A stretch of 64,000 nucleotides of DNA from Conchocele bisecta. Lineage: Eukaryota > Mollusca > Bivalvia > Lucinida > Thyasiridae. The notes under the pieces are model-generated. The model did not search any database. It had not been told where the DNA came from and saw nothing but the letters and a program-made list of their open reading frames with translations. Position 1 is the first letter of the stretch; each line of letters begins with the position of its first letter. Where the stretch lies: positions 113,353,370-113,417,369 of the forward strand of contig CM055266.1 in assembly GCA_029237695.1 (NCBI GenBank), written 5' to 3'. Positions 6,315 through 53,020 of this stretch are shown one piece after another. The position numbers and the translations under genes were made by a program.

Positions 6315-7557
6315 TTATCCTTTCCTAAATGCAGCGAAAATGAGGCCACATGACTCGCAACACGGGTCCAGGAAACATCCTACACACTGGCTCCACAGCT
6401 TCTTCAGGCAACTGCAGTTTAAATCCATCACCTTGAAGCAGGGCGTGAAGCACCATATATGGATGAAGGAAATATAGGCGAACTCACAGCCCCACTCCGC
6501 CGCGTAGCATATCCCGCAGAGTAGCGTGCTGATTTTGTAGCAGAGCGACTTCCAGAGGCTGAAGCAGGTGTAGGAGAGGCTCCAGACACAGTCCATGCTG
6601 TGGGTGCCATCAGGCTCCGCCAACACATCCTCGAAACTGCACTAAAACACAAAATGTATCTACAATTATATAACCTCTCTAAACCGGACACGCAGACAGT
6701 ATGTGTATCCTTAATCTTATGGGTTTCATTGGTGTGTATTTATGATGATAATGCCTGTTCAAGTCCGCAAAGCAAAGCCGCATAACTTAGCAGTTATATG
6801 TCTAATTTACAGTGAACATCTCGAATGTAGGGTGTCCGGTTTAGAGAGGTTCCATTGTAGTATGTCAGTTATAGTGTAATAAAAATCGGATTTATTGCAG
6901 TAGCAATATTTTCCTGAATAAAACCATCGGAGTATAAGTAGTTAACCCTTTCTTAACTACTGACATTCATCCTGTTAGCAAACAGTGTATTTCCAACAGT
7001 GTATTTCCAGATGAGCCAGTTCGTAATGAGCCGCTTCATCAGGGGGCCGTTTCACTAAACTTCGTACGACTAAAATGTTCGTAAGTGCACATTTGGAATC
7101 GTCTGGAAAGTTCAATTGATGGATTTACATTTATTGAGCATAGGCTGCTTATGCAGCCTTTGCTCAATAAATGTAAATCCAATAATTGTTTACAAGAAAT
7201 TATTGTTAATGTGAAATTTACAGACTAGTATAGGTTTGCACTTACGAACATTTTAGTCGTAAGAAGTTTAGTGAAACGGCCCCCAGGATCTGCACCATTT
7301 GCTTCAGAGTAAATGGAATAGTCAGAAAAATAACATGGAATTGTCCTTTCCTAGTGTAGATTGCAAGAGTTACTGTTCGCAACTACGGCAAATTATGATG
7401 TCTGTCAAATCACATTAATTATTGGCATGCAATTGTATTTAACTATAACTAATTGTTCTAATTAATTGTACATGTATTTAATTTGTCCTCCGAACAAGTT
7501 TACCTGCAAGTGTGCGTTGATGTTGTTTGGGTCCCGGTTTACAAGATCCACAGGCAT
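6315..7557 (-). CDS. cavA: caveolin, two exons, join(complement 7557-7504, 6641-6315)
   Basis: Caveolins are hairpin membrane proteins that oligomerise into the coat of caveolae. The predicted protein is 126 residues. Exon 1 (18 residues) carries LVNRDPNNIN; exon 2 opens with CSFEDVLAEPDG (19-30), the caveolin signature. Residues 35-54 correspond to the scaffolding segment. Residues 55-86 form the hydrophobic hairpin ending FTPC, with P85 matching human CAV1 P132 and C86 matching its palmitoylated C133. There are 16 cysteines. The 862-bp intron has a good donor (CAG|GTAAAC) and acceptor (TTTTAG|TGC) and is phase 0, as in vertebrate caveolins. The ATG at 7557 is the first in frame after a stop. 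The intron holds an F element and a B element nested in an E relic. It is divergent from cavB. The identification as caveolin is firm; the function in this animal is inferred. Confidence 0.93.
6667..6860. mobile_element. Family F element in cavA intron (TTAA empty site)
   Basis: Ends read CCTCTCTAAACCGGACAC and GTGTCCGGTTTAGAGAGG. The interior (GTGTATCCTTAATCTTATGG) aligns with the copy at 16845-17291, which carries an E element at this TTAA. Confidence 0.7.
6955..7395. mobile_element. Family E relic split by a family B element
   Basis: E-type sequence (AACCCTTTC..., CCAGATGAGCC, GCCGCTTCATCAG) is interrupted at TCATCAG and resumes as CAGGATCTGCACC. The interrupting DNA is a complete B element at 7042-7282. 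Confidence 0.7.
7042..7282. mobile_element. Family B fold-back with CAG target duplication
   Basis: Complete B copy: GGGGCCGTTTCACTAAAC left, complement right, central hairpin AGGCTGCTTATGCAGCCT. CAG flanks both ends, and intact E copies have a single CAG there, so the insertion made a 3-bp duplication. Confidence 0.85.
7504..7557 (-). CDS. cavA exon 1
   Basis: 18 codons from ATG to the donor, ending NRDPNNINAHLQ. It was found by searching for the NRDP..N motif next to a GT donor. The frame stays open upstream of the ATG for roughly 35 codons without another Met, so a longer N-terminus spliced from upstream is possible. A TATA-like site about 115 bases upstream argues against it. Confidence 0.88.
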
Positions 7558-7671
7558 ACTTATAGGATGGTCGTTGTATTCCCAACTGTATTTCTGGTCC
7601 TGTGCATCAAGATTCAAAATCCGTCCAATGCTCGGCCGAACGTTTGATAAGATTGGGCGGGTCGAATGGAG

Positions 7672-7678
7672 TTATATA
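7672..7678 (-). promoter_or_regulatory. Possible TATA box of cavA
   Basis: Minus-strand TATATAA about 115 bases upstream of the cavA ATG, followed by unique sequence. It would put transcription start near 7645 and leave a short unspliced leader. Based on motif and spacing only. Confidence 0.35.
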
Positions 7679-7747
7679 GCGTTGTCGCTGAATTTACAAC
7701 CCTAGATATGTGGCAAGACACAGCACGCTTAACCATTCTTAAACTAC

Positions 7748-7974
7748 TGGGGCCCGATTCACTAAACTTCGTACGACTAAGATGTTCATAATTTAGGATC
7801 GTATTGTAATTTCAATTGATGGATTTACAGGTATTGAGCATGCAGCCTATGCTCAATAAATGTAAATCCAATAATTGTTTACAATAAAACATTGTTAATG
7901 TGAACTTTACAGACTATCATAATTTTGCACTTACGAACAATTTAGGCGTACACAGTTTAGTGAAACGGCCCCCA
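7748..7974. mobile_element. Family B fold-back
   Basis: Full-length, slightly degenerate copy between GGGGCCCGATTCACTAAAC and GTTTAGTGAAACGGCCCC, about 190 bp upstream of the cavA ATG. Confidence 0.8.
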
Positions 7975-7999
7975 GATATATATCATAATGGCTGCAACC

Positions 8000-8290
8000 G
8001 GTGTATATCCAAAAGGAGCCGGCTCGAAACGAGCAGTCTGTTCAGGATCTACTCCATTTGCGGTTAGTTTCTTTTTTTTATAAAAAAAAACATTGCTCAT
8101 TTCAGATAAATGGAATAGTCTGAAAGCGGCTCGTAACGAGCCGTTTCTTCAGGATCTGCACAATGTGTGGTTATTTTCTTAAATCTAAAAACAGCACTCC
8201 TTTCTGATGCAAAAGTGTAAACAATAACATGGGAGTGTCCATTCCAGTTGCGTAGGGTTGAAATGATTAAGGCCTGAGATATGCAATACC
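8000..8290. repeat. Degenerate family E copies
   Basis: Two decayed E segments with the paired GGCTCG.AACGAGC hairpin and CAGGATCTGCAC motif. No intact ends. Confidence 0.5.
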
Positions 8291-8399
8291 ATTATGGCAG
8301 TGCTTCAAAGGTCCCACAAAGATACGCGTCTGGTAAGCTCATTAGAATCCTTTCACTGAGATGTATTACGGTAACTATTTCAACACTACATATAGAGAA

Positions 8400-8541
8400 T
8401 ACCAGGCTAGTGTCTTTTGATATTAAGTTTATCAGGCAAGGCTAGGAAACGCGTAGGAATTACAAGGCTTGCCGAGGAATTCCTACCGTTTCCGAGCCGA
8501 GCCTGATAAACTCGATATCAAAAGACACTAGCCTGGTATTA
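8400..8541. mobile_element. Fold-back element, family S
   Basis: Inverted arms ACCAGGCTAGTGTCTTTTGA and complement, with an inner stem reading CAGGC.AGGCTAGGAAACG. A related but rearranged copy is at 52430-52650, upstream of cavF exon 2. Confidence 0.7.
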
Positions 8542-8543
8542 TA

Positions 8544-8795
8544 TTTATCAGGTAACGTTTTATGCTCGAAAATGACCACATATGACGTCGTATTATATGG
8601 ACAGAACGCGGACTTGTTTACGCTGCGTCATTACACTGACGTCATTCGGTAACGTCACGTGACGTAATCCGACCAATGCAACGTCAGTTTTCACTTCGTT
8701 GTAACCCGGATGTTTATATCAGTGCAATGCCTGATACAACAATATGTTATCAGTCAGTACGTATTCGGTCAATGCAGGACAGGTTACCTGATAAA
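8544..8795. mobile_element. Short element with 13-bp inverted ends
   Basis: TTTATCAGGTAAC at the left and its exact complement at the right, 252 bp apart, with CpG-rich unrelated interior (several ACGTCA motifs). Single copy here. Confidence 0.5.
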
Positions 8796-8798
8796 CCT

Positions 8799-9016
8799 CT
8801 ATAGCGGTGTTTGCAAACACTGTCGGTCCAGATGAGCCTGCTCGTGACCAGCTGTCTCATCAGAATCTGCACGTTTTGCAAATAGTTTTCATATGTTTCG
8901 GTAAAAAAAACACACACCCTTTTCATATATGGACGAGCCTGAAAATCATTTTGTGACGATTAGTTTGGCCGGAAAGTTAACATATCAAAATTAATTCCAT
9001 ATATTTAGGGGTGAAC
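8799..9016. mobile_element. Family E-like fold-back (decayed)
   Basis: Matches the E body (TCCAGATGAGCC, CATCAGAATCTGCAC, TGAAAATCATTTTGTGACGA) but the TTAACCCTTT ends have decayed. Confidence 0.6.
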
Positions 9017-9051
9017 AGGTTATGTAAATGCTTCACAGCCTGCTATAGTAG

Positions 9052-9401
9052 CCAAGGTGTATGATCACGTGGTACTAACAACAACAACAAGTACCGATTC
9101 AAAGTACGTATTATTTTATAATGTGCTTATTACGTAACGGATGTTGATGAAATATGGCGCATCAAACGCGTCTTGATAAGCTGCATTTGTTTGTCTCTTT
9201 ATTTTCGCCCAAACTTCTGTCGTTTTTGCGAAGATTCGATTTCTGTATCTCTGACACGGAAATCGATTCTTCGCAAAAACGACGCGTTTGCTGCGCCATA
9301 TTTCATCAAAATCCGTTGCATATTAAGGAAAATATCAAATAATACTTATTTTGGAGTGGGCGACGTTGTTGTTGTTGTAACCACGTGATCATGCACATTG
9401 G
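9052..9401. mobile_element. Fold-back element, family I
   Basis: Ends CAAGGTGTATGATCACGTGG and complement, each followed by an AAC/GTT triplet run. Inside is a stem TGTCGTTTTTGCGAAGA.TCGATT paired with its complement, and ACGCGTCTTGATAAGCTGCA. Other copies are at 16067-16330, 18690-18886, 37919-38601 (split) and 49745-50140. Confidence 0.8.
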
Positions 9402-9654
9402 TAGCCGTTGCCCCTGATTGTTTTAACCATGATAAGCGCAGTGACAACGGCGAATCCATACCACTGGTTTATTGCGTTTTACACATGATTGTCAGGTATT
9501 TAGTTCAGTAGTGAATGTCACATGTTCATGGTGATACATATATCATAGTCTCTTATAATTCTTACTCAGGATGACAATGTACTGTGTTTAGTGCTTTACA
9601 ATACATTGTATATATATTTAGTATATGGTGACGAAGGAAGAGGGTGAAGGGCGA

Positions 9655-10335
9655 ATATAACGTTCGACCATGTCCAGCCGTGGGTACATGTTTGCTGTGG
9701 CACGAGGGAACTGTTTGAATCACAAGGCCGTAGAGGCCGCGGGTTCAAACAGTTCCCGAGTGTCACGGCAAACGTTTACCCACGGCTAGGCATGGTCGAA
9801 CCTTAAATTGTTACACTTCCATCGGAAATATCGTGTAATTTGAGCATATATGCAGTATTTTCGATACTTTGATAACCTGTTCCATTCAAATAGCTGATCT
9901 ACGTATACATACATATTCCGGGACCGCAGAGCATGCAAGTGCCCCATCATCCGCATCAATATCAAAATGGCGGACAGTCTCGAGAATTTTTTATTATATT
10001 TTCAGCAATATTGACTGTTTCAATAGTAGTTTAGTGTGATTACTTCGCAGCAATGAATACGTAAAATATTTGACCGCGTGAATCAGGTGGATAAATGGAT
10101 AAATGGTTTACAGGTGGATAAATGGAGTGAAACTGTGCGACCGTTCTGAACTGGTCTCTTGTGAAGTAGTGGCACGTTCTAGTAACCTGATGAGACACAT
10201 GCATTACGTAGGTGTTGGCCTGACCCCGGAATGAGCATTGCCTACAGCCGTGGTCAAACAGCACGCTCTGCACGTTTGAGCACGGCTGTGAGCTGTGTCA
10301 AACAACGGCAGTCCTGTAACACTATTCGTTACTTA
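9655..10335. mobile_element. Family J composite (hairpin plus flanking arm)
   Basis: The hairpin at 9662-9804 pairs GTTCGACCATGTCCAGCCGT with its complement around GGCCGTAGAGGCCGC. Downstream sequence to about 10335 reappears in inverted order at 26315-26810, so the mobile unit is larger than the hairpin. A hairpin-only copy is at 28863-28985. Confidence 0.65.
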
Positions 10336-10339
10336 CCTA

Positions 10340-10949
10340 CTGTCTCACGAAAGCTGCTCAAATGTTACGACTATATAAATAATGCAAACACTAGTTTTTC
10401 GATGTTAAATTTTATCAAAATTTACGTATGGGTCTTCTTTTTATTTTGGGAAGTTTGGTCCAATACGAAAATGCAATTTCCCCATGTTTTCCATTTTTCT
10501 AATTTCAGAAATAGTGGACCGATTTTTAAGATTTAACTTTTGTTTTCTTAGTTAGATCATTTCCAAACTATCTAGCCAGGTTTCGGAGTCAATTTCCAAT
10601 TTTGTTTCGATTTTTGTCTCATACCACAGCTCCTCCACCTCCTTTTCCCCCATGTTGGATTCCCGTAGAGAAATCATTAAAATTTTGTTCGTTATAAAAT
10701 CAATATTTGACCAAATTTCACGAAATATAAAGGAGGCTCATTCTTAAATATTGCTATCATTTATCGGGCTTCACTGTAGTTTATTCTATTTTCATGTCTG
10801 TTCATGATTGAAAGTAACAAAACATGGAGTGCTTACTTACAGTGGAACGTCTCTAAACCGGACACCCTGGGAATATTATCAACACAAATATTGTTTTTGC
10901 ATTGTTTATATGGCCGTAAAATTTAGGCAAGTTTCGTGAAACAGACAGT
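10340..10949. mobile_element. Fold-back element, family P
   Basis: Ends CTGTCTCACGAAAGCTGC and AGTTTCGTGAAACAGACAG. Long A/T-rich arms pair AGTTAGATCATTTCCAA-type sequence. A family F piece (10843-10880) interrupts the right arm. A cleaner copy is at 58704-59204. Confidence 0.65.
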
Positions 10950-11001
10950 AGTGACCGAGACATGGCGCCCACATGAAGAATCAGATGAACGGTCGTTGAC
11001 C

Positions 11002-11412
11002 AGGCCCGTACGCAGGAATTCTTTTTTTTTTTGGGGCGGGTGGCGGGGGTGCGTTATCGACGGCGCGAAGGGCTAAACATTGTTTTTGCACACCCACGGA
11101 CAGACCTCGGCAGATTAACCCTTTCACTCCTAAATAACTGGAATGGATTTTGATTTGTTAATTTTGCGACCAATCTAAATCATCACAAACTGATTTTCAG
11201 ACCAGTCCATTTATGAACATGGGGTGTTTTCGTTCTCAAAATTATGAAAATGAATTGCAAAAAGTGCAGATCTTGATGAGACGGCTCGTTACGAGCCGGC
11301 TCATCTGGATCTACATTTTTTGCCAATACCACTATGCAGGCCTGCGGGTTAAGAGTGATAGGGTTACGGGGGGTGCGTACGCACCCGTCGCACCCCCTCT
11401 GCTTACGGGCCT
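11002..11412. mobile_element. Element with AGGCCCGTA ends, split by family E
   Basis: Outer ends AGGCCCGTACGCAG and CTGCTTACGGGCCT are inverted repeats. An E element bounded by TTAA sits inside at 11115-11352. A relative with the same outer motif lies at 61321-61500. Confidence 0.55.
11115..11352. mobile_element. Family E element (piggyBac-like, nested)
   Basis: TTAACCCTTTCACTCCTAAA at left and GCGGGTTAA at right, with the GACGGCTCGTTACGAGCCGG hairpin. TTAA at both borders and CCC ends fit piggyBac-type MITEs. Confidence 0.7.
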
Positions 11413-11793
11413 GCGTTGATCACGGTGCAATAAACCGTTTATTGGGCATTGTATAGATAACACCATACTAAATATAAATTTATATTGCAGAATATTTACA
11501 ATGTCCTTATATCCATAATGGAAACGGCCATGCAGCATGTAGCGTTTACATCCCAGTACATTACACTAGCCCCACGTGACGTCGCGCGACGTTGTTGATT
11601 CGTTAACGTTTGTTTGGCGTCATTAAAATGCATGAAGTTCATCGTCGTTGTCAATAACGTCACGTTATTTGACCGGCAAGGTCGCTGTGCTATGAATTAC
11701 GACAAAACGACGTAAACACGAATATTCATATTTTTAACGCCGATTTTGGTTATTTCCATTTTCGAAATTATCCAAAAATGCAATGCAAATATA
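11413..11793. other. Gene-free stretch
   Basis: No gene. Contains CpG-bearing ACGTGACGTCGCGCGACG near 11572-11590 and otherwise unique AT-rich DNA. Confidence 0.4.
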
Positions 11794-11965
11794 AGTAATA
11801 ACACCATGGGCAGTTGCGTTTACTGTAGTAATAACACCATGGGCAGTTGCGTTTACTGTAGTAATAACACCATGGGCAGTTGCGTTTACTGTAGTAATAA
11901 CACCATGGGCAGTTGCGTTTACTGTAGTAATAACACCATGGGCAGTTGCGTTCACTGTAGTAATA
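11794..11965. repeat. 33-bp tandem repeat, five units
   Basis: Five nearly identical units of AGTAATAACACCATGGGCAG... (33 bp) followed by a partial sixth; the last unit has one T-to-C change. It is open on both strands because 33 is a multiple of three (11-residue repeats). I do not call a gene. Confidence 0.9.
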
Positions 11966-12158
11966 AGAAAACAGTTGGTCTGTTTAAAGTGTGCGAGGAG
12001 TCCTTCGGCTTTAGTCCTTAATTATAAATAAAGAAACCTATTGATATACTAGGAAGTAATAACGAGGACAAGCAAATGTTTTACAATTCAACAGTTTTTA
12101 CTTTTGAATTTATGGTTACCATATCATGTATTTGTGATATTGAACCAGATCCAATAAT

Positions 12159-12252
12159 ACGGAGCCCCGCAGGGGAGATAGATTTTGTTTTATTGATTCG
12201 GTCCCACGAAATAACAATTCGTTCCCTCAATTTGACAATTCGTTCCCGTGGG
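12159..12252. mobile_element. Truncated family A element
   Basis: Left end ACGGAGCCCCGCAGGGGAGA followed by about three 21-bp units, then it breaks off with no right half. Confidence 0.7.
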
Positions 12253-13167
12253 TAAAATCATCAGCCCCATTTCTGCACCGCCACAAATGAGGTCGGAAAA
12301 CGTTTTATAGAAAATGCCGAATTCTTTTCCACTTTTGCTCAGAACATTTCGTCAACTTTTGTAAATATCGTAGCATTTCCCAGGGTTTCCGGCTTAGAGA
12401 GCTGTAAAAAATTGTTTTGGCAGCGCATGAGAATCGTCTCCACTGGATTCACATCATTTACATAAAAGTAACAGAAAATATCACAGTTTTTGAAATATAT
12501 TTCATGAAAAATCGCACATTTCTTAAATACAAAATCATACTGGTTGCCGGCGGTTTTAACGCATACTACTAATTGGTCAAAAACTGATCAGTGTTGTAGT
12601 GGCACAGATGTGCCTCGACAACACAGATCAGTTTTTGACCAGTGTCTCTCAAAATAAAAAAAATGTTTTTCCACAGGTGACCCAAGCAAACCAAAAGTAT
12701 AACCATTTATAGGGATATTTCTACTTTGTATGTCAAAGGTATACATTCGCGCAAAACAACGGACGTGTTCAATTATACAAAGGCTGATTTTAACACGACA
12801 TAGTCAACTACAATCATGTGACATTGTGATACCATATCTTTTATCTATTGAATGTTTAACGTACTTCCTAGATTATGTCAGAAGTAATGGTTTTACAAGA
12901 TACCATCAGTCTAAACCTAAAGCTTACATACATAACATTAAAGCGATTTATTTCCCTAATATAATTGTAATTCCGACTAGCACACGATACTAGTAACGAT
13001 GACGTCAGCCATGGCAACAACGAGAAAGGAAGTCATAATGCCACTTTCTTTTTATGCGACGCAGATCATGTGTCGTTATTACAAATATGTGCCCTTTATT
13101 AGTGTCAATGTGTAAACATATAATTATGTAAATCTTATAGCAAAGATGGTATTATACAAACATGTCT
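12253..13167. other. Gene-free stretch with one hairpin
   Basis: An imperfect palindrome at 12574-12641 pairs TGGTCAAAAACTGATCAGTG with its complement. The rest, including an 87-codon open frame from 12730, shows no recognisable coding signal. Confidence 0.45.
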
Positions 13168-13460
13168 TTATCCTGTCAACACAGTGCGTATGTGCCGTGA
13201 AACACGGTGCCTTGAAACATTTTGTATATCCTGTCAATATGACCTAATCACTGCGTATGAATATGTGCGTTGACTGGGGTTATTTTTGCATTTCAAAGCC
13301 ATGTGTATGTGTTGACGGGATAAGTATGTGCCGTGAATGGGAAACATATCTGGCGCGGCACGGAAACGGGTTGTGCTCAGCAGAGCCTCGCCCATCCCGT
13401 TTCCTAAGCCTTGCCACATATTTTTTCCCATTCACGGCACTAACCTACCATTCTCTATAT
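13168..13460. mobile_element. Double-hairpin element, family G
   Basis: Two fold-backs in series: ATCC.GTCAACACAGTGCG ... TGTTGACGGGAT, then GTGCCGTGAATGGGAAA ... TTTCCCATTCACGGCAC with a GAGCC.CGCCCATCCCGTTTCC inner stem. Other copies: 22625-22887, 25770-26050, 38011-38283, 40255-40577. Confidence 0.8.
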
Positions 13461-13618
13461 ATGTCAACTATAAAGTCACGTACGTCGCACGAAACTCCCA
13501 TGTATTTGTATAGCCGTTAAGGTGTTAGGTCATAGATAGATACAGTTGACTTGAATGATAATTGATTCATAAGAGTGATGTGATATATGAATATAACATA
13601 ATTATGTGAAAATTGTCT

Positions 13619-14285
13619 TGTTACTGTATAATATATGGAGCATTGAGTTGCCATCTCCGCCATCTTTGTAAGTACAAGCCATCGTACAGTTTCACCACAT
13701 TTCGTGCGTTTGACCCATACCACCAATAATATGACAGTAAACCAAATAAAACTTGGTGCAATACATCATTGACATACATGACAACGGCAAGCTATAAATA
13801 TTATTCCAGCAAACTATACAACAGACGAGATATCTTAGCATTTCTCCAATCAATCTCAAAAATAAATTTTGATGTGTGAACTTTTCAATCTGGTCAAGTC
13901 ATATTTACTCGCATAGTAGGTGAGTAGACACCAGGGCCAATACACTCAGGTAACAGCTTACATGTCACTGGATTTGATAACTAGTAACAGAGTACAGTAG
14001 TGGGTATATATGGTATGTGTTGTGTGGTTTGCCAGGTAAAAGTGATACACTGTGCGATTTTCTGTGTATGAGGGCTATTTATAATGGTGGATCATGTGGT
14101 CAAAAACACACCTATCCAGTCAGTTATCATGGCTTTTCAACATGTGATTAGCTACATTATATCATATGTTCTACTTCACATTTTTAGTTCTTTATCAAAC
14201 GACAGAACATGTACAACTGGTTGATGGCTGGAACACACAACGATGGCAAACCTGACCACTCCACGTGCCATATAGGATACAGTAA
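13619..14285. mobile_element. Fold-back element, family V
   Basis: Long imperfect inverted ends (GTTACTGTATAATATATGGA / CCATATAGGATACAGTAAC) about 667 bp apart. A second copy spans 23155-23960 with a G-derived insertion, and a one-ended copy is at 40855-41000. Confidence 0.6.
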
Positions 14286-14461
14286 CCAGGCAGTATTCAC
14301 ATTTACGAAGCAATTATGTTTGAATCAAACAATGATCGGGTATAGAACGGGTCCTTAATCACCAATGTGCATTATTTACAAGAGAATATATATGGCAGGG
14401 AAAAAATGTCAGCCCCGTTACATCGACGTAATAAATGATATTTGTCCGCAGCTGAGTAAAG

Positions 14462-14545
14462 GTACCTTACGACGGGTGCGGCCAGCGTAGCCCCAGATCA
14501 GCCTGCGCATCCGCGCAGTCTGATCTGGGGCTACGCTGGCCGCTA
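14462..14545. mobile_element. Family D hairpin core
   Basis: GGCCAGCGTAGCCCCAGATC pairs with its complement around TGCGCATCCGCGCA. Only the core is present; the outer arms are missing. Confidence 0.65.
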
Positions 14546-14573
14546 TTCCGTCAATACAGCATTGTTTCTGCAT

Positions 14574-14800
14574 CAGGGGCCGTTTCACTAAACTTCGTCC
14601 GACTAAGACGTTCGTAAGTGCAAAACTAATATTCACATCAAGGTTGGCATTGGTTGCTGATTTGTGTAAGTTTTTGGTAGACTTCTTCCGACTGTAAACC
14701 ACCACATATAGGTGGAAAATGTCAGCATACATGAATCATAACTTTATAGAAATATTCGTACGAACATGTGTAACGTACGAACTTTAGTGAAACGTGTTCT
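14574..14800. mobile_element. Family B variant (B')
   Basis: B-type ends (GGGGCCGTTTCACTAAAC / TTTAGTGAAACG) enclose a different interior with TTCACATCAAGGTTGGCATT. The same subtype recurs at 45717-45946, so it is a distinct subfamily. Confidence 0.65.
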
Positions 14801-15171
14801 GCCCATCAGTAACACTTTTGATTAATCTCTGTTTGCATGAATACTTGTTATTATCAGTATCTACACTGGTCACAAAATGACATAAGGGTCTGGTTTCTCG
14901 CACAGCGGCATCCCATTTATTAATTAGAGTAATGAAACATAATTCTCGACGGAGGTCTGCTTAATACATTCCTTGATCCGTCAAACATCAATTTTCTCGC
15001 ATCACAGTTTAAAGGCCACTGCCGTTAAGTCATGGTCCAGCCAGGGATGTAATATAGAGGATATGAAACAACGCGACATCTCGCGAAACCCGATAGCAAC
15101 TCGCCTGATTAATACACTAGCCAGTTTGTAAAATGGCTAAACCGTCTTAATTCTAAATATCTGACAACATA
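14801..15171. other. Gene-free stretch with family D remnants
   Basis: ATCTACACTGGTCACAAAAT near 14868 is D-like. No gene. Confidence 0.4.
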
Positions 15172-15244
15172 TACAGTGAAACCTCTCTAAACCGGACACC
15201 CTGTGAGGTTCCCCAGGGTGTTCGGTTTAGAGAGGTTCACTGTA
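15172..15244. mobile_element. Family F palindrome (Tc1/mariner-like MITE)
   Basis: TACAGTGAAACCTCTCTAAA pairs with its complement across GGTTCCCC. CAGT...ACTG ends between TA dinucleotides fit Tc1/mariner, perhaps pogo-type. A further end fragment lies at 15355-15385. Confidence 0.75.
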
Positions 15245-15684: not shown

Positions 15685-15770
15685 TTTAGACGGGCTTCAC
15701 TGTAGTTTATTCTATTTTCGTGCCTGTTCATGATTGAAAGTAACAAAACATGTTCATGGAGTGCTTACTT

Positions 15771-16330: not shown

Positions 16331-16339
16331 ATGATTATA

Positions 16340-33813: not shown

Positions 33814-33814
33814 C

Positions 33815-41998: not shown

Positions 41999-44900
41999 TT
42001 ATTCCTTGCGAATGTTTATCCGACTAAACACCATCCCGTACGCCTCGCAGACGGGATTCAGGCAGCAGCCGATAATCACGCTGAATAACCTCCGCCAGCA
42101 GCCGACAGTGATGGAGAAATCGCGCAGACACGGCGTCAGACACCAGACGTGCGCGAATGACGTCACGGCGAACTCGCAGCCCCACTGCAGCGCGATACAG
42201 AGGCCACATAGAGTGGTGAGGAGACGGTAGCAGACGTTCTTGCTGCACTCGAAGCACTTGAAGCTGTTCACCCAGACGCAGTCCATGGAGCGGATGCCGT
42301 CTGGCTCACCAATCACGTCCTCGAACCGCGTCTAAAATAGAACCGTAAATATTAACTATTTATCTATAAATAGTTCAAAAATAGCACACGACAATTAATT
42401 ATATTTTCTTTTATTTCTCCCTGTATATATCATGAATATGTCTTGGAATTTCATTAGAATTGAGTCCGGAAATTCCAAGACATATTTACAGAGAGAAATA
42501 AGAAAAATGCTCATAGAAACCTGTGTGCTATTAATAGTTAAAAAATAGACGGCAAGTTAGTATATTTTCTTTTGTTTTCCCTGTAAGTATCATGAATATG
42601 TCGCGGAATTTTAAATTACAGCACATTTACAAAGAGAAATAAGAAAATACTCCTAATTTGCTGGCTCTAACTTTCGCCGCTTGCATGAAGATAGTTGAAG
42701 ACACACGCCATTTGATTTCGTGGCTAAGCAGATGTGCGATATTTCATGAAAAGTATTCACACACACTACGATATTTCATGAAAAGTATTCACACACTCTA
42801 CGATATTTCATGAAAAGTATTCACACACTAGTATTCACACACTCTACGATATTTCATGAAAAGTATTCACACACTCTACGATATTTCTCCGTAAAATGTT
42901 CCGCATTTGCTATAATAATTTTGTCAACTTTCGACGTCATTTACGGAAAATATCACACTTTCTGTAAATCAAATCATACAAATATTCTTGGGTACAAAAT
43001 CACATGGCCTCTCTCATTTACACACAATCTGTGACTGCCTTGGGAAATAGGGTTTATTACATGTGTCACCTGTCTCAGCACCGATCTATTAGTACACGCC
43101 TGCAACCCGTCCCCGATCTATTAGTACACGCCTGCAACCTGTCGTCCCCGATCTATTAGTACACGCCTGCAACCCGTCCCCGAGCTATTAGTACACGCCT
43201 GCAACCTGTCCCCGATCTATTAGTACACGCCTGCAATCTGTCGTCCCCGATCTATTAGTACAGCTGCAACCCTCCCCGACATTCCCGTACACGCCTGCAA
43301 CCTGTCCCCGATCTATTAGTACACGCCTGCAACCCGTCCCCGAGCTATTAGTACACGCCTGCAACCCGTCCCCGTCATTGAGTACCTACCCGTCCCCGAG
43401 CAGTACACGCCTGCAACCCGTCCCCGATCTATTAGTACACGCATGCAACCAGTCCCGATCTATTAGTACACGCCTGCAACCCGTCCCCGATCTATTAGTA
43501 CACGTCTGCAACCCGTCCCCGAGCTATTAGTACACGCCTGCAACCCGTCCCCGATCTATTAGTACACGCCTGCAACCCGTCCCCGGTCTATTAGTACACG
43601 CCTGCAACCCGTCCCGATATATTAGTACACGCCTGCAATCCGTCCCCGATCTATTAGTACACGCCTGCATCCCGTCCCCGGTCTATTAGTACACGCCTGC
43701 AACCCGTCCCCGATCTATTAGTACACGCCTGCAACCCGTCCCCGGTCTATTAGTGCACGCCTGCAACCCGTCCCCGATATATTAGTACACGCCTGTAACC
43801 CGTCCCCGGTCTATTAGTGCACGCCTGCAACCCGTCCCCGATATATTAGTACACGCCTGCAACCCGTCCCCGGTCTATTAGTGCACGCCTGCAACCCGTC
43901 CCCGATATATTAGTACACGCCTGTAACCCGTCCCCGGTATATTAGTACACGCCTGCAACCCGTCCCCGGTATATTAGTACACGCCTGCAACCCGTCCCCG
44001 ATATATTAGTGCACGCCTGCAACCCGTCCCCGATATATTAGTACACGCCTGCAGCCCGTCCCCGGTCTATTAGTGCACGCCTGCAACCCGTCCCCGATAT
44101 ATTAGTACACGCCTGCAACCCGTCCCCGATCTATTAGTACACGCCTGCAACCCGTCCCGATCTATTAGTACACGCCTGCAACCCGTCCCAGATCTATTAG
44201 TACACGTCTGCAACCCGTCCCCGATATATTAGTACACGCCTGCAACCCGTCCCGAGCTATTAGTACACGCCTGCAACCCGTCCCCTATCTATTAGTACAC
44301 GCCTGCAACCCGTCCCGAGCTATTAGTACACGTCTGCAACCCGTCCCCGATGTATTAGTACACGCCTGCAACCCGTCCCGATCTATTAGTACACGTCTGC
44401 AACCCGTCCCCGATATATTAGTACACACCTGCAACCCGTCCCCGATATATTAGTACACGCCTGCAACCCGTCCCCGATATGTTAGTACACGTCTGCAACC
44501 CGTCCCCGATATATTAGTACACGCCTGCAACCCGTCCCCGAGCTATTAGTACACGCCTGCAACCCGTCCCCGATCTATTAGTACACGTCTGCAACCCGTC
44601 CCCGATCTGTTAGTACACGTCTGCAACCCGTCCCCGATATATTAGTACACGCCTGCAACCCGTCCCGAGCTATTAGTACACGCCTGCAACCCGTCCCCTA
44701 TCTATTAGTACACGCCTGCAACCCGTCCCGAGCTATTAGTACACGTCTGCAACCCGTCCCCGATGTATTAGTACACGCCTGCAACCCGTCCCGATCTATT
44801 AGTACACGTCTGCAACCCGTCCCCGATATATTAGTACACACCTGCAACCCGTCCCCGATATATTAGTACACGCCTGCAACCCGTCCCCGATCTGTTAGTA

Positions 44901-46565: not shown

Positions 46566-46893
46566 TATACAAGATGATGTTGAATTTATTTTATTAATTT
46601 ATTTATTTCCAACATTACATTAAAAGCAACATATCAGGCATGCTGATGTTGGCTAACTGAATTTCGTGTTAATATAATTGCGGTGTGTTTTATACTTTCA
46701 TCATCATTAAAATGTCTTAAAATTCTGTACACTGAAACTTGCATTGTGGATTTTGTTTGTAATTAAAGAAATGATTTTACAATATAATCATTCATTATAC
46801 AGATTTAAACGCATTTTGAACGCGGTGACTGGTAACCATACACCCTCACTATTCTAAACAACTGCATAACAACAGGGATTAATTATACGTACC
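46566..46893. other. Upstream region of cavE
   Basis: Unique, strongly AT-rich (TTTATTTTATTAATTTATTT near 46584). A promoter is expected here but I cannot place it. Confidence 0.4.
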
Positions 46894-47109
46894 TTAACCC
46901 TTAAAAGGCGGGAACTGAAAACTATCGTTTGTTGTTGTTTCGTACTCGTCTTCTTTGTTCTCTCTCAATAAAACAAGGTTTGACAGTACTTTAGAATCAT
47001 TTCCCTTGAAAATGATTCTAAAGCACTACCGGAGCATGTTTTTGATGATACACCTGGAAACGATATAATCAGCAGACGACAAAAAGTAATTCAGCATTCT
47101 AAGGGTTAA
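46894..47109. mobile_element. Family L element (TTAA-bounded)
   Basis: TTAACCCTTAAAAGGCGGGA to TTCTAAGGGTTAA, with the AGTACTTTAGAATCATTTCC hairpin. Confidence 0.8.
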
Positions 47110-47146
47110 CAATAGTGATTTGTTCTGACACCATCAGTAATGGGTG

Positions 47147-47361
47147 TTAACCCTTAGACTGCTGAGCACGAAAATTGTCGTCTGCTGATGCTTTATATTT
47201 TGCCTTCTTTCTCAATAAAGACATGGTTTAACAGCACTTTAGAATCATTTCCACTGGAAATGATTCTAAAATACTGTCAAACCATGTTTTTGATGAGAAC
47301 AAATCGAAAATAAAAAATAAACAGCAGACGACAACATTTAATTTGGCAGTGTAAGGGTTAA
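47147..47361. mobile_element. Family L element (TTAA-bounded)
   Basis: TTAACCCTTAGACTGCTGAG to GCAGTGTAAGGGTTAA, with a hairpin arm CAGCACTTTAGAATCATTTC. Confidence 0.8.
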
Positions 47362-47399
47362 CTGTTATGCATTGTGCGAAAGTAAGGCCAGAACAATAA

Positions 47400-47835
47400 G
47401 TACATCGATTCTCAGACACGGGGTTTGCGCCGCGCGCAATGTGAAGCGGAAGGGCGGATTATGTTTAACCCTTTGAACCCGAAAGCCCGCTTTATCGGTT
47501 TATGCAAACAATGCAGATCCAGATGAGCCGGCCCTTTTTACAAATGGAATAGTCTGAAAATCATTTTGCGATGATTGGATTGGTTGCAAAATTAACATAT
47601 CGCAGCCCATTCAGTTACTTAGGGTTGAAAGGGTTAATATATTTATTTTCTTTGAGATGTTCGTCTCTGATTTTTTACAAGTTGTCAGATGCATATGATA
47701 TGCATCTGGCAACTTGAAAACAAATCAGAGAAGAACATCTCAAACAAAAAGAATATGTTCTATAAAGTGACTATAACCTCTTTAGACATGAACAATCACA
47801 AGATTTTCGTCAGACATGACTGGATTTAACATGTT
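47400..47835. repeat. Family O repeat interrupted by family E
   Basis: Counterpart of 28603-28865. It includes the GTTGTCAGATGCATATGATA hairpin and AACAATCACAAGATTTTCGT tail. E sits at 47465-47637. Confidence 0.7.
47465..47637. mobile_element. Family E element, deleted copy (TTAA empty site known)
   Basis: TTAACCCTTTGAACCCGAAA to GGGTTGAAAGGGTTAA. The hairpin is missing one arm. Comparison with 28603-28865 shows one TTAA before insertion. Confidence 0.8.
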
Positions 47836-48167
47836 TTTGCATGGTAGTGTATTTTATTGATCATGTGGAGAATTTGTAGTACAATTTTATTTCTCCATGA
47901 CGATACAATGCTCGACGGGCAGGGATTATTCAGGCGCGGCGATATCTGAGAACCAAAGTACTGCTTTATGGCCTAAGACTACATGGCTGAGATACAGCAT
48001 ATTTGCGCATGTGCTGTTCTAACCGATGATCTATGGGGACCAATCAATATATTCTCCACCACATAATATAATATTCGTGAGTACATGTATTTAACCCATT
48101 TCTTGCTGAGGATATGCCATTTTGATTAGGGAAAATCATAAATATTTGTGCTATATATAATATATGT
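47836..48167. other. Gene-free stretch
   Basis: Unique AT-rich sequence; nothing recognised. Confidence 0.35.
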
Positions 48168-48225
48168 GCTTAGACGTATATGTTACGACCACCATTTGAA
48201 CCGTCTCATCGTTTCATTGATAAAT

Positions 48226-48592
48226 AATTCCAGCACAAAAATATTTACACAATTCCCTAACATTTGATTGGCCCGTAGCAAGTCTCTGTCCAACATTTAT
48301 ATCCCAGTAAGCTCCCACGCCGAACTACTTTCCGTAACCGTGAGGCGCAGTTAAAATAATTCTTAAGAAAATGGAAAATAAAAAACATTTTCTTGATGAA
48401 TTTATTTCAAATGCTGGAATTATAAGGGATGAATGGCATTTTTGTGGAATTTATCGGGGATATAAACTTGGAAAAGTCGCGGGAATACTGGACAAGGCCT
48501 TCCGACCTTCGTCCAGTATTCCCGCGACTTTTCCAAGTTTATACCCCGATAAATTCCACAAAAAGGCCATTCATTCCTATAATAACAAAAGT
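48226..48592. mobile_element. Family H element, full length
   Basis: TTCCAGCACAAAAATATTTA to GGCCATTCATTCCTATAATA; the longest and least broken H copy. Half of a W palindrome (48168-48210) precedes it. Confidence 0.8.
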
Positions 48593-49744
48593 AAAAATAA
48601 CACAAATCATACCCGTAATGGTGTATTCCGCATGGGTCGCTTTTGTTGTTTACAGAGCATTTTGAAGGAAATAAGTGATATTTGGTAATGTGACCTTTAA
48701 TATAAAGGTGCTTATTAGGCTACTTTGCTGATTTCAGAAGAAGACCGTATAAAATAGAATCAAAGTGCTGAAAGAACTGAAAATGTATCGCCAGAAACAT
48801 AACGTAGGAAAGTGTGCCTGCCCCAAACTGATGATGCCCCCATTCGCAGCCTTTGTAGCAATCTTAATCTGGTGTGGGGTGCCGTAACACACCAGATCCC
48901 TTAGCCCATACCATATTAAGAGGCATAAATTGATCCAACTCTCAGATACACTTTACGAATACCAGAGGGCCAGGCCAGGTGCAAAATAGGGAACTGTAAA
49001 GATGAATCCCATCGTAAAGTTCACCCTTCACATTGCTCCCAACCAAATAATTTTGAAGTTGGTATAAAATAATTACTTTTACATGAACCCCGGGTCACCA
49101 TTTTAACAAATCTGAAAGAGCATCAGTGGTCGATCAAGTTTGTACAGTTTCATTCATATCGGCTTGTCAGTACTTGAGAAAATGGTTAAGAATTTAACCC
49201 ACTTTTGAGATGGCGGCCATCTTGGATTTCGTAGCGCCGCCATTTTCATCAAATTTGAAAAAGGCATCAGCAAGAATCATATGTGTAACATTTGACCAAC
49301 ATCTGCCTTGAGCGGTCCATGAGATATAGCAAATTTGAAGTTGGTAATTGAATAATGACCCTTTGACCTTTCAGCGGCCATCTTGGATGACCTAATTATA
49401 CGATTGCAATAACAGAAATGGGGACGGTGACATGTTTGTTATTGATGAAAATTAAAAAGTACTTATAATTAAATACTTTTTTTAGATGTAATGCGGTTAA
49501 TTGCCAAAAGTTCGTTCGTCGGCAGGAAAGGAACTGACAGTAAATTAATCTTAACTTATTTCGCAGACATTCATCATCTGCTTCTGCTCCGCAATTATCC
49601 GCTTGTAATAATTACATTAGCCTTGGTACTTTACCATCCCATTTGATCAAGTACAAGCACCGTAGACGCATTCGCCATGCATTACAGTTACCGTTGCAGA
49701 GGCACCGGATCGTACCGCTCTCGGCTGGTAACGGTACCGGCTTA
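48593..49744. other. Gene-free stretch, probably old repeat
   Basis: Contains GCCGTAACACACCAGATCCC, two GGCGGCCATCTTGG-type motifs and TTGTTATTGATGAAAATTAA, the last shared with 25390 and 36640. No coding signal. Confidence 0.45.
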
Positions 49745-50140
49745 TACAAGGTGCATGCTCACGTGGTTATAACAACAACAGTGGCTGAAAGTATTGCAAT
49801 CTTGAAAGTATTATTTGATATTTTCCTTAATATGAAACAGATTTTGATGAAATATGGCGCAGCAAACGTGTCTTCATGAGCGCATTGGGTCGTCCAGGGA
49901 GTTCGGCACAGACTTATGTCGTTTTTGCGAAGAATCGATTTCCGAAGAAACGACAGAAGTTTGGGCCAAAGTACAGAGACCACAAATGCAGCTTAACAAG
50001 ACGCGTTTGATGCGCCATATTTCATCAAAATCCGGTACGTAATAAGGACAATATAAAAGAATAAGTACTGTCAATCGGATCGATTCTGGAAGTTTCAGTA
50101 CTTGTTGTTGTTGTTAGTACCACGTGAGCATACACCTTGT
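49745..50140. mobile_element. Family I element, complete
   Basis: ACAAGGTGCATGCTCACGTG to CACGTGAGCATACACCTTGT. The inner stem is TCGTTTTTGCGAAGAATCGA. It serves as the intact reference for the split copy at 37919. Confidence 0.8.
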
Positions 50141-50252
50141 TATAGGGGTCGCCCAAAAATAAAATAGATAAATAAAATGGTGATACCGAAAACAGTAATA
50201 TACATGGACGCTGACATAACTGTCTGACGATACAGTACAGATATAAATAACT

Positions 50253-50323
50253 ACAATGGTGCCTCTTTAAAGCGGACAACATGGGAGGTCCCCAGGGTGT
50301 CCGGTTTAGAGAGGTACCACAGA
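50253..50323. mobile_element. Family F palindrome
   Basis: CAATGGTGCCTCTTTAAAGC folds on GGTGTCCGGTTTAGAGAGGT. Confidence 0.7.
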
Positions 50324-50733
50324 AATTCCCGTATATCAGCACGCCAGAACAAATGTTGCTTTTCAATCATGACAGACATTATCATTTGCCATTGATTACA
50401 ATAACATCATACAAATATTAAACACAATGCCGTTTTATGAATATGAGGTTCACATTTACCACATTAAGTCATCACTTATATATTGTATGAGATCCTGCAT
50501 GCAGTCATTCAAACTCACAGGCTCATACAGGCTCATACATCATATAACAACAATGCCACGGGTGACGCGTGTGGAAGGTCGCTTGATATTTGTAAAATAT
50601 AACAGTTATCGATAGCAATTCTATTGACTAAATTGTACAAGCTTTCGAATATGAATATGACCTCGTACATTTGCGTGCAACAATACATTTGTATTCGCAG
50701 TACCGTATATACTAGGCAATTGTAAAACAGTCG

Positions 50734-50945
50734 TAATCCTTACACCGCGATCTTAATCTTTTGTCGTCTGTTGTTTATTTTCTATTTTCCATTTTTATCA
50801 TCGAAAACATGATTTGACAGCACTCTCAGAATCATTTGGAAATGATTCTGAAGTTCTGTCAAACCATGCTTTTTATTGAGAAATAAGGTAATATATAAAA
50901 GCAACAGCAGACGACAATTGTTGTGTGTAGCGGTCTAAGGGTTAA
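50734..50945. mobile_element. Family L element, left TTAA lost
   Basis: TAATCCTTACACCGCGATCT to GCGGTCTAAGGGTTAA; the hairpin is CAGCACTCTCAGAATCATTT. Confidence 0.7.
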
Positions 50946-51545
50946 ACAGTTACATTCTAGTTTACATGGACGCCTCCTTTGGCTACTATTTTGTTAGTTC
51001 TTTCTTATTATGCACGATGGCTGTTCGAAAAGTGTTACACAATAGGTTGCTAGTAATACTATTGCACAAAGCAATGTCGAAACATATTAGGAAAATATAT
51101 TAATACTTGTGATTCATCAGGCTGCTAGGTTCATTCTTCATGTATTTTGCAATCATGAACATGCATTATTATATGAGATGCGTTGCCAAGAAACCTCTCA
51201 AAAAGAGATCACATATGTTGTCGTGGTGTCTGGTATAGAGAGCTTCTAATGAGGTTAATCGTGTCTGTATTCCAGTGTGGATGATGAGTACAACATACAA
51301 TTCACGAAAGAAATATTTCCAAATTCGATACATCATTTTTCATTTAGTATTTCTGATTCGATATGTTGAAAATGAAATGAAAATGTGATATTTTTTTACA
51401 AGACCTACCGATGACAATTGAATGTGAGAGTAGAAAAGGGGGTCCAGAAAGGACTTATCCCCCTTTTTCCACTGACCCCTTCAAGGGTATTACTTTTCAA
51501 TCAGTTATCGTATGCTAGCGCATGGACGTATGAGCAACTACGAGT
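50946..51545. other. Gene-free stretch upstream of cavF
   Basis: One decayed F end (GTGTCTGGTATAGAGAGC near 51225). Otherwise unique. Confidence 0.4.
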
Positions 51546-51649
51546 TACAATGGAGTCAACGTGTAAGTGCACACACGAACGAACACGACAGGTTGGAACC
51601 AACCTGTCGTGTTCGTTCGTGTGTGCACTTACACGCTGACCCCACTGTA
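51546..51649. mobile_element. Family M palindrome
   Basis: CAATGGAGTCAACGTGTAAG to ACACGCTGACCCCACTG, TA-flanked, with near-perfect arms. Confidence 0.85.
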
Positions 51650-51781
51650 TCACAGGTATGGATATCAACATGTAAGCGGGTATACACACTATAATTATAT
51701 TTGTTCGTTTCCATTTCCATATATTAATGAGAAACAAGAGAAACAATGAACCATCGTCTCCAATTTACCGGCAAAAACAAA

Positions 51782-51788
51782 TATAAAA
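51782..51788 (+). promoter_or_regulatory. Possible TATA box of cavF
   Basis: TATAAAA about 87 bases upstream of the cavF ATG, with an initiator-like TCAGCTC some 33 bases downstream. The sequence between here and exon 1 is unique. Motif and spacing only. Confidence 0.4.
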
Positions 51789-51868
51789 CTACGCCCGATG
51801 CAGGAGGTATAGCAGTCAGCTCCCGAACACCAGCCGTATTGTAGTCGACCGTATAGACACCGAGCAAC

Positions 51869-51931
51869 ATGGGCGAACAACGCGTAGACTTGGTCAACAG
51901 GGATCCTAGTGACTTAAACTCGCATATAAAG
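51869..51931 (+). CDS. cavF exon 1
   Basis: 21 codons; LVNRDPSDLNSHIK reaches the donor. ATG context is CAACATGG. Confidence 0.92.
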
Positions 51932-53020
51932 GTAGGCATAATTATATGAGACGATTTATTTGATTTTGTACCTCGGAAGATGTGCGGTATCTCATGAAAA
52001 AATATTTACAAAATTTAGGATATTTTTACGTAAATTATGTCGAACGTTGACGAAATATTCAGAGCATATGCAGAATAGAATTTCGCATTTGCTATGAAAC
52101 TATCGCCAACTTTCGACGTCATTGACAGAAAGGATCGGAGTTTCTGTCAATGGTTGTTTTAATAAATATCGCCCAACTTCTTAGGTATAAAGTAACATGG
52201 GTTGTTGTTTTATACGTACATTGCTTGTACGGACGTGATAGAAAGTTATTTTTCTTGCACGATGGTACTACAGTGGGGTCAGCGTGTAAGTGGCTGACCC
52301 CACTGTACTACTTCATTTTGTTCAATGTGTTTGGTACTTTAGGCAAAATCACGAATAATGCATTCATCTATTCTCTGTATAGAGAACAGTTGATTGCTTT
52401 CTGCTCGGAAGCGACAGGAATTCCTTCGCTTTTCCAAGCCAATTATCCTGATAAACTGTATATCAAAATAATCTAGCCTGGTATTCTCTCTATCTATGCT
52501 AGGATCTATGAGATCACTCGCCTGTCTTTGTCCTGGTTTTCAAAGCATATGCTTGATCAGGCTAAGCCCAGAAACGTTAGGAATTCCGATGCGAGCCTCG
52601 GAATTACGCGTTTCCTAGCTTAGTCTGATCACCTTGGTATGCCAATATACCAGATTGGGATTGTCCATGCGAACACTACATTCACAGGTGCTGTTCGAAG
52701 ATGTACTCGGTGAACCTGAAAGCGTTCGATCCATGGACTGCGTCTGGTCCAACAGCTACAAGTGCTTCGAGTGCAGCAAGTCACTCTGCTACAAACTGCT
52801 CACCACGCTCTGTGGCATTTGTATCGCCATGGCATGGGGCTGCGACTTCGCCTACACCTCCTTCATCCACATCTGGTGCTGGACTCCGTGCCTCCGGGAT
52901 TTCTCCATCTGTGTCGGCTGTGCACAGAAGATATTCGGCACGTACATCGGCTGTTGTTTGTCCCCGATCTGCGAGTCGTGTGGTTTGGTGTTCAGCAAAA
53001 TTCGGATTACCAAGCAGTGA
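51869..53020 (+). CDS. cavF: cysteine-rich caveolin, join(51869-51931, 52688-53020)
   Basis: Predicted 131 residues. Exon 1 (21 residues) is MGEQRVDLVNRDPSDLNSHIK. Exon 2 opens VLFEDVLGEPESVRSMD (22-38). Residues 38-57 are scaffolding-like and about 58-89 form the hydrophobic hairpin ending WTPC, P88 matching CAV1 P132 and C89 its palmitoylated neighbour. The C-terminal part ends FSKIRITKQ. There are 15 cysteines. The 756-bp phase-0 intron (AAG|GTAGGC ... ATTCACAG|GTG) holds an N element, a miniature M element and an S-type element. A TATA-like site lies 87 bp upstream. It is divergent from cavE. Codon third positions favour G/C, which also opens long antisense frames that are not genes. Confidence 0.95.
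51957..52205. mobile_element. Family N element in the cavF intron
   Basis: TGATTTTGTACCTCGGAAGA to TATAAAGTAACATGGGTTGT; it starts about 25 bp after the donor. Confidence 0.55.
52269..52307. mobile_element. Miniature family M element (internal deletion)
   Basis: Only 39 bases, with the two ends joined: CAGTGGGGTCAGCGTGTAAG then TGGCTGACCCCACTG. Flanked by TA. Confidence 0.8.
52430..52650. mobile_element. Family S relative
   Basis: ATCTAGCCTGGTATTCTCTC, GATCAGGCTAAGCCCAGAAA and AATTACGCGTTTCCTAGCTT match parts of 8400-8541 in rearranged order. It ends 37 bp before cavF exon 2. Confidence 0.55.

What the first reader, a model, noticed from the sequence alone, without database searches (positions are those of the whole stretch)
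6315..53020. Six caveolin genes in strictly alternating orientation
Seen: six two-exon genes with all caveolin landmarks, strands -,+,-,+,-,+, giving three head-to-head pairs joined tail to tail in 47 kb. Known: vertebrate caveolin families are small, with CAV1 and CAV2 adjacent. Inference: the array grew by inverted duplications or repeated pair duplication, and divergent pairs may share control DNA. The even alternation is unusual for a tandem family.
Basis: partly seen in the sequence, partly recalled or inferred. Interest (0 to 1): 0.9.

Follow-up and report, generated by a model that had tools for sequence, protein, structure and literature searches.

The report
Slice of a 19-gene caveolin array
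This clam DNA really does hold six caveolin (membrane-shaping) genes in alternating direction, but they are the middle of a cluster of 19 whose directions overall look random, so the surprise is the size and age of the caveolin family rather than the alternation.

Summary
In detail: six intact two-exon caveolin genes lie at 6315-53020 on strands -,+,-,+,-,+, each with a phase-0 intron at the same site. The source is a clam-like genome of 1.89 Gb. Its contig C2 shows that the six are genes 7-12 of a 19-gene array of about 162 kb; 35 caveolin-domain places were found genome-wide. Strands over the array read +++----+-+-+-+-----: 10 runs against 9.8 expected; the longest alternating stretch is 9 genes (p 0.02, post hoc). 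Alternation is a local streak. Neighbours are not simply inverted copies: A+B is rejected (AU p 1.8e-43), C/D and E/F are unresolved. Divergent starts are 10.6, 3.4 and 5.3 kb apart, far for classical bidirectional promoters. The best such candidate lies just outside: sisters G/H, head to head, 0.9 kb apart, repeat-free spacer. B is a CAV1/3-type caveolin; the other 18 lack the CAV1 P110 residue and have 11-18 cysteines (B has 10).

The parts
6315..6641 (-). Gene A exon 2 (A-type caveolin; array gene 7)
   Evidence: PF01146 E 1.1e-33; acceptor TTTTAG|TGC
7504..7557 (-). Gene A exon 1, MPVDLVNRDPNNINAHLQ
   Evidence: motif scan and donor CAG|GTAAAC
18152..18625 (+). Gene B exon 1 with long N-terminal extension (CAV1/3-type); start placed by alignment
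   Evidence: aligns from its MS.. start to Mercenaria, Ruditapes and Mactra relatives; donor AAG|GTATGT
24535..24873 (+). Gene B exon 2
   Evidence: PF01146 E 1.2e-35 (on the open frame 24502-24873); clade with bivalve B relatives and vertebrate CAV1/3
30174..30506 (-). Gene C exon 2 (C-H subfamily)
   Evidence: PF01146 E 4e-31 (on the open frame 30174-30575)
31201..31266 (-). Gene C exon 1
34646..34720 (+). Gene D exon 1
36933..37373 (+). Gene D exon 2, divergent, with a C-terminal tail of about 36 residues (or an unseen third exon)
   Evidence: PF01146 E 2.7e-29; tail; end branch 0.72
41999..42331 (-). Gene E exon 2; sister in the tree to Mercenaria P0023
   Evidence: PF01146 E 5.6e-34; 100/98 with P0023
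46488..46565 (-). Gene E exon 1
51869..51931 (+). Gene F exon 1
52688..53020 (+). Gene F exon 2
   Evidence: PF01146 E 3.2e-34 (on the open frame 52619-53020); AlphaFold model pLDDT 84.7, pTM 0.38; sole PDB match at E <= 0.001 is CAV1 7sc0, E 1.5e-5
7558..18151 (.). A/B divergent spacer, 10.6 kb, 66% repeated elsewhere in the 200 kb
31267..34645 (.). C/D divergent spacer, 3.4 kb, 41% repeated
46566..51868 (.). E/F divergent spacer, 5.3 kb, 46% repeated

Best explanation
The six genes are intact caveolin genes, members 7-12 of a 19-gene caveolin cluster on one 160.7-Mb contig of a bivalve. The cluster holds several old caveolin lineages side by side: a CAV1/3-type gene (B); an A-type block (genes 1-7) related to gastropod and chiton caveolins; a C-H subfamily seen here only in heterodont clams and unnamed sources; and, to the right, gene I (nearest a unionid caveolin), 16/17 (nearest Mercenaria P0013) and 18/19 (a long branch of unsure place). 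It grew by many separate local duplications, some direct (16/17, 18/19), some inverted (1 against 4, probably G/H). Alternation in A-I is a by-product of those events and not a rule. The proteins most likely work as caveolins do, as oligomeric discs in the inner leaflet of the membrane. Shown: gene content, order, strands, main lineages, sequence and fold match to CAV1. Inferred: that B is the general caveola-former, that the others are specialised or accessory disc subunits, and that G/H share a promoter.
For: Six of six exon 2s pass PF01146; conserved intron; F and B match CAV1 7sc0 by sequence, E 5.8e-26 and 1.3e-28. Own genome: 35 PF01146 places over the curated cut-off, 19 of them in C2:113.298-113.460 Mb (a lower bound by the tool's own note), each exon 2 of the 19 in one open frame. 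Tree: B with vertebrate CAV1, CAV3, CAV2 and Nematostella (12 rows, 99/95); A with Babylonia, Liolophura and Ruditapes P0041 (99/98); C-F in a clade of 15 rows, all heterodont or unnamed (96/93). The 81-row tree keeps these groups and adds G+H (96/78) and g01+g04 (100/97). Synonymous sites are saturated: NG86 dS at least 1.0 in 15 of 15 window pairs. DNA matches between window exons reach at most 16 bp past an exon edge. Strand runs are as expected by chance.
Against: A permutation p of 0.02 for a 9-gene alternating streak is not nothing, and all six C-H genes alternate (2/64 on its own). C to D and E to F are unresolved, so old sister pairs remain possible; by raw identity E is nearest F in the 81-row set (69%). 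C-H as a private clade is only moderately rejected (p 0.021) and C-F as a private clade is not (p 0.109). The trees rest on 130-135 columns and are unrooted, so 'split before molluscs' is inference. The fold match is local: pTM 0.38, TM 0.43, rmsd 13.2. No expression data were available. Strand order could not be checked in any relative.
Confidence: 0.82

Rival explanations
1. The alternation records repeated inverted (head-to-head) duplication, each divergent pair being a sister pair.
For: G-/H+ are sisters (96/78) with exon 2s 81% alike in DNA; g01+/g04- are sisters (100/97). C+D and E+F are not rejected; E, F and Mercenaria P0023 form an unsupported group in the 55-row tree (39/0); E's highest raw identity in the 81-row set is to F (69%).
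Against: A+B rejected with AU p 1.8e-43. E is sister to Mercenaria P0023 in the trees (100/98; 99/96; 99/97). No flanking similarity between window neighbours beyond 16 bp.
Confidence: 0.3
2. One head-to-head pair was duplicated tandemly as a unit, which alone would give perfect alternation.
For: It predicts the strand order of A-F exactly; D+F is not rejected (p 0.40; p 0.28).
Against: It predicts that same-strand genes are sisters: B+D rejected (p 9e-5), C+E borderline (p 0.049); A lies outside the C-F clade.
Confidence: 0.08
3. The divergent arrangement is kept by selection because pairs share promoters or enhancers and are co-expressed.
For: G/H start codons are 908 bp apart and 0% of that spacer is repeated elsewhere in the 200 kb, against 41-66% of the other three spacers.
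Against: The three window pairs are 3.4-10.6 kb apart; no low-copy sequence is shared between spacers; 8 of 10 genes of the second array are on one strand.
Confidence: 0.2
4. Assembly artefact or misoriented contigs create the alternation.
For: None seen.
Confidence: 0.03

Closest known systems
Vertebrate CAV1/CAV2 locus and CAV3
   Same: Same Pfam domain and best PDB match; caveolin genes of different old lineages on one chromosome (PMC12330381, section 7 read: CavX and CavZ on one ancestral vertebrate chromosome). The intron before the signature exon sits where I recall CAV3's intron.
   Different: Two neighbouring genes (recalled) against 19 in an array; 18 of 19 lack the CAV1 P110 residue (C in 16, F in 2, read by eye). 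Cysteines from the signature motif on: median 15.5 in six A-type rows and 15 in 35 bivalve C-F rows, against 7.5 (range 3-15) in eight outgroup rows, of which three are vertebrate (3-7).
Bivalve caveolin sets of Ruditapes, Mercenaria, Mactra, Dreissena, Sinanodonta (database records)
   Same: Several caveolins listed with one contig length per species; A-, B- and C-F-type together in Ruditapes. B relatives in Mercenaria, Ruditapes and Mactra carry the same N-terminal extension; the Dreissena and Mya models start later.
   Different: Order and strands in those species were not available here.
Protostome caveolin groups of Kirkham 2008 as cited in PMC12330381 (section 8 read)
   Same: Protostome caveolin groups besides Cav1/3 are already recognised.
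   Different: In the sections (7, 8) and passages I saw, that paper does not describe a mollusc array or gene orientation, and the word cysteine does not occur in its main text.

Membership tests
Caveolin (PF01146) | Domain score over Pfam cut-off | tested here: met
   6 of 6 window genes, 102-123 bits against a cut-off of 25; 35 places genome-wide
Caveolin (PF01146) | Signature motif FEDVxxEP and W85, W115, W128, P132, P158 (CAV1 numbering) | tested here: met
   all five residues in 6 of 6 window genes; motif variants FEDV, FEEV, FEEC, FDEV
Caveolin (PF01146) | Caveolin fold | tested here: met
   F exon 2 only: pLDDT 84.7 but pTM 0.38; Foldseek best and only significant hit 7sc0, E 1.5e-5, TM 0.43, rmsd 13.2
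Caveolin (PF01146) | Forms membrane discs or caveolae | not testable with these tools
   needs protein work
CAV1/3-type caveolin (gene B) | Groups with CAV1/CAV3 and keeps P110 | tested here: met
   12-row clade 99/95; P in 8 of 8 B-type rows
CAV1/3-type caveolin (genes A, C-F) | Groups with CAV1/CAV3 and keeps P110 | tested here: not met
   outside that clade; C at the P110 column in all five
Bidirectional promoter pair | Divergent starts within about 1 kb (convention, recalled) | tested here: not met
   A/B 10,591, C/D 3,379, E/F 5,303 bp between start codons; G/H, outside the window, 908 bp. Transcript starts are unknown
Sister head-to-head pairs from inverted duplication | Each divergent pair is a clade | tested here: inconclusive
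   A+B rejected; C+D and E+F unresolved; G+H a clade at 96/78

The most novel reading that the evidence does not exclude
A combinatorial caveolin locus: an array of caveolins that have lost P110 and are mostly cysteine-rich, kept next to one CAV1/3-type gene, supplies interchangeable subunits for mixed discs with different lipid loading and curvature. Compact divergent pairs such as G/H act as expression units.
Probability: 0.15. Interest if true: 0.75.

Novelty: new variant of a known kind. Interest (0 to 1): 0.5.

Why it matters
Humans have three caveolin genes. One bivalve contig holds 19 in one array, from lineages that on these trees split before molluscs, plus a second array of near-identical copies. 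That gives natural variants, including loss of P110 and many added cysteines, for testing which features discs and caveolae need. It also corrects the idea that alternating strands are the point: strand order should be judged on the whole array.

Tried and rejected
Rejected: A and B as a sister pair; unit duplication of one divergent pair across the array; a recent inverted duplication within the window visible in DNA; a shared low-copy element in the divergent spacers; the array as a window-sized unit. Led nowhere: Rfam gathering-level search, 0 hits. Pfam scans of 28 other open frames, one of them B's exon-1 frame: RVT_1 over its cut-off in two and a below-cut-off endonuclease match in one, all three between 2122 and 4051 on the minus strand; 25 gave nothing. 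Paper searches for a mollusc caveolin array or expansion: listings only, several listed papers that mention caveolin were not opened (for example PMC9334734); none was recognisable by title or abstract as describing one. One search listed no paper holding P110A, so the importance of P110 is recalled. (alternating arrays; caveolae in bivalve muscle) gave nothing I used. The first exon-1 profile search printed nothing and was redone. A repeat AU test of A+B on the 81-row tree did not finish. First exons of I, 16 and 17 were not found. The bootstrap of the 55-row tree had not settled. flag a stop inside some matches (A, E and others); the exon 2s themselves are stop-free, so I take these stops to lie in the intron side of the match.

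Rows: the 62-row tree used 54 of the 121 proteins then in hand, P0017 and P0018 cut in halves, plus six window genes. The 81-row tree left out nine of those rows (both Mytilus halves, Argopecten P0069, Diachasma, both Tegillarca P0017 halves, Plakobranchus, Elysia, Ylistrum P0034) and the interrupted copy at C2:103.513.
Full report
Observation. Six caveolin genes are present exactly where described. The exon 2s A 6315-6641 (-), B 24535-24873 (+), C 30174-30506 (-), D 36933-37373 (+), E 41999-42331 (-) and F 52688-53020 (+) lie in open frames that all match PF01146. Each has a first exon on the same strand, carrying an (N/D)RDP motif and joined by a phase-0 intron at one position. Introns are 862, 5909, 694, 2212, 4156 and 756 bp for A to F. 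B's first exon is probably 474 bp (18152-18625), coding for an N-terminal extension with a serine-rich SSxSTSSF stretch shared with Mercenaria, Ruditapes and Mactra; the Dreissena and Mya models begin further in. D runs about 36 residues past its relatives' stop.

Source. The nearest proteins are from Mactra, Dreissena, Mercenaria and Ruditapes, so I take the window to be from a heterodont clam. Its own assembly has 1,891,530,640 bases in 1196 contigs; the window is C2:113353370-113417369.

The wider array. The family search gave 35 places over the Pfam cut-off, a lower bound by the tool's note. Nineteen lie in C2:113.298-113.460 Mb. I fetched 15 pieces of 10 kb around and overlapping the window, checked that both overlaps are identical, and found all 19 exon 2s in stop-free frames. 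Strands in order are + + + - - - A- B+ C- D+ E- F+ G- H+ I- - - - -. Ten more lie at C2:103.37-103.65 Mb (8 minus, 2 plus; one interrupted by a stop), and single places at C2 78.1, 110.2, 85.97, 86.04 and 21.98 Mb and on C7; the open-frame pieces at 85.97, 86.04 and 21.98 Mb cover only part of the domain. Over the 19 genes there are 10 strand runs against a mean of 9.84 in permutations (p 0.57). The longest alternating stretch is 9 (p 0.021 by permutation, 0.023 by coin). That p is post hoc, since the finding was picked for alternation.

Lineages. In a 62-row, unrooted tree, B groups with vertebrate CAV1, CAV3, CAV2 and Nematostella (12 rows, 99/95) and within that with bivalve B relatives (100/99). 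A groups with Babylonia, Liolophura and Ruditapes P0041 (99/98). C-F lie in a 15-row clade of heterodont or unnamed sequences (96/93), inside a 21-row clade with unionids (99/90). E is sister to Mercenaria P0023 (100/98). Holding A+B together costs 108.8 log units (p 1.8e-43); C+D p 0.392; E+F p 0.117. C-F together p 0.109, D+F p 0.397, C+E p 0.049, B+D p 9e-5, A+F p 1e-4. A 55-row tree with more relatives gave C, D and two unnamed sequences 81/81 and an unsupported E+F+P0023 group (39/0), with C+D p 0.306, E+F p 0.119, D+F p 0.276. An 81-row tree with the genome copies gave G+H 96/78, g01+g04 100/97, g16+g17 100/100, g18+g19 100/100, I with a Sinanodonta sequence (92/71), 16/17 with Mercenaria P0013 (96/84), and put nine copies of the second array plus those at 78.1 and 110.2 Mb with g02 and g05 (13 rows, 100/95). 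In it E's highest raw identity is to F (69%) although its sister is P0023. C-H as one private clade: p 0.021; C+D p 0.393; E+F p 0.114. So C-H copies probably predate the split from the other clams sampled, but the trees rest on 130-135 columns and many forks are weak.

Mode of growth. Synonymous sites are saturated for 15 of 15 window pairs; A is nearer F (58%) than B (34%). Exon DNA matches within the window reach at most 16 bp past an exon edge. In the 200 kb the clear recent duplications are direct: g18/g19, 2.7 kb at 92%, and g16/g17, 94% over exon 2. The inverted ones look older: G/H 81%, g01/g04 85%, g02/g05 84% over exon 2, and g03/g06, which share 298 bp around exon 1 at 85% (its long list of repeats was cut, the exon list was complete). 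Both kinds of event therefore built the array. The order 1,2,3 then 4,5,6 with pairs 1-4, 2-5, 3-6 is not the mirror order of a single block inversion; I have no explanation.

Control DNA. Start codons in the divergent pairs are 10,591 (A/B), 3,379 (C/D), 5,303 (E/F) and 908 bp (G/H) apart. None of the G/H spacer matches elsewhere in the 200 kb, while 66, 41 and 46% of the other three do; no low-copy sequence is shared between spacers, and CpG content of the four (observed/expected 0.95-1.01) is that of the region (0.97). A shared promoter is thus plausible only for G/H, by distance alone.

Protein features. Window genes keep W85, F92, W115, W128, P132 and P158 (6 of 6). The column of CAV1 P110 is P in 8 of 8 B-type rows, 5 of 5 gastropod rows and 7 of 8 outgroup rows, but C in 6 of 6 A-type rows (which include Babylonia and Liolophura) and C (30) or F (5) in 35 bivalve C-F rows. 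Cysteines in the first 110 residues from the signature motif have medians 7.5 (B), 15.5 (A), 16 (gastropods), 15 (C-F) and 7.5 (outgroups, range 3-15, the top being Branchiostoma). Window D has only 10, as many as B. Cysteine richness is therefore shared with gastropods and amphioxus and not unique here; loss of P110 is narrower. That more cysteines may mean more palmitoylation is inference; PMC10212548 (passages read) gives three potential sites in CAV1 and six in CAV3. The model of F exon 2 has pLDDT 84.7 and pTM 0.38; its only match at E <= 0.001 is CAV1 7sc0, with TM 0.43 and rmsd 13.2.

Literature. PMC12330381 (sections 7 and 8 and passages read; [quoted passage not shown] its methods list Mercenaria and Mya. 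In what I read there is no mollusc array or strand order; its supplements were not open to me. Other searches of open-licence papers were seen as listings, apart from passages of PMC8063583.

Verdict. A real, well-read observation whose headline, alternation, shrinks when the rest of the array is seen, while the family itself turns out much larger than the window suggested.

Noticed in passing
G000:C2:113298434-113460166 (window plus flanks): 19 caveolin exon 2s in about 162 kb; the window holds only genes 7-12.
   Followed up: yes
G000:C2:103369767-103647817 (L038-L040, L044, L046, L047, L049, L051-L053): Second array of 10 near-identical A-type (g02/g05-type) caveolin exon 2s, 8 on one strand, one interrupted by a stop; looks like a young expansion. 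One search also lists a weak fragment at 103574509.
   Followed up: partly
G000:C7:25489004-25489360 (L054): A caveolin whose exon-1 and exon-2 parts run on in one open frame (no intron), on another contig: a possible retrocopy with extra termini.
   Followed up: no
G000:C2:113472230-113472295 and 113478751-113478816 (-): Two caveolin-like first exons (ending HVK, as in Mercenaria P0013) with no exon 2 found between them and gene 19, while genes 16 and 17 lack a nearby first exon: either very long introns with genes 18/19 nested inside, or orphans.
   Followed up: partly
G000:C2:113323694 and 113350643: Genes 3 (+) and 6 (-) share about 300 bp around exon 1 (85%), but gene 6's exon 2 is closer to A (86%): possible exon shuffling or gene conversion.
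   Followed up: no
window 37263-37373: Gene D reads on about 36 residues past the usual family stop; CAG|GTCTCT there could be a donor to an unseen third exon.
   Followed up: partly
window 43081-45460: 32-bp tandem repeat array of about 2.4 kb inside gene E's intron; probably explains the local C excess seen.
   Followed up: no
window 2122-4051 (-): Broken non-LTR-like retroelement (RVT_1 over cut-off in two frames, weak endonuclease match in a third).
   Followed up: no
P0017 (Tegillarca), P0018 (Mytilus): Database proteins with two caveolin domains in one chain: fused gene models or true tandem fusions.
   Followed up: no
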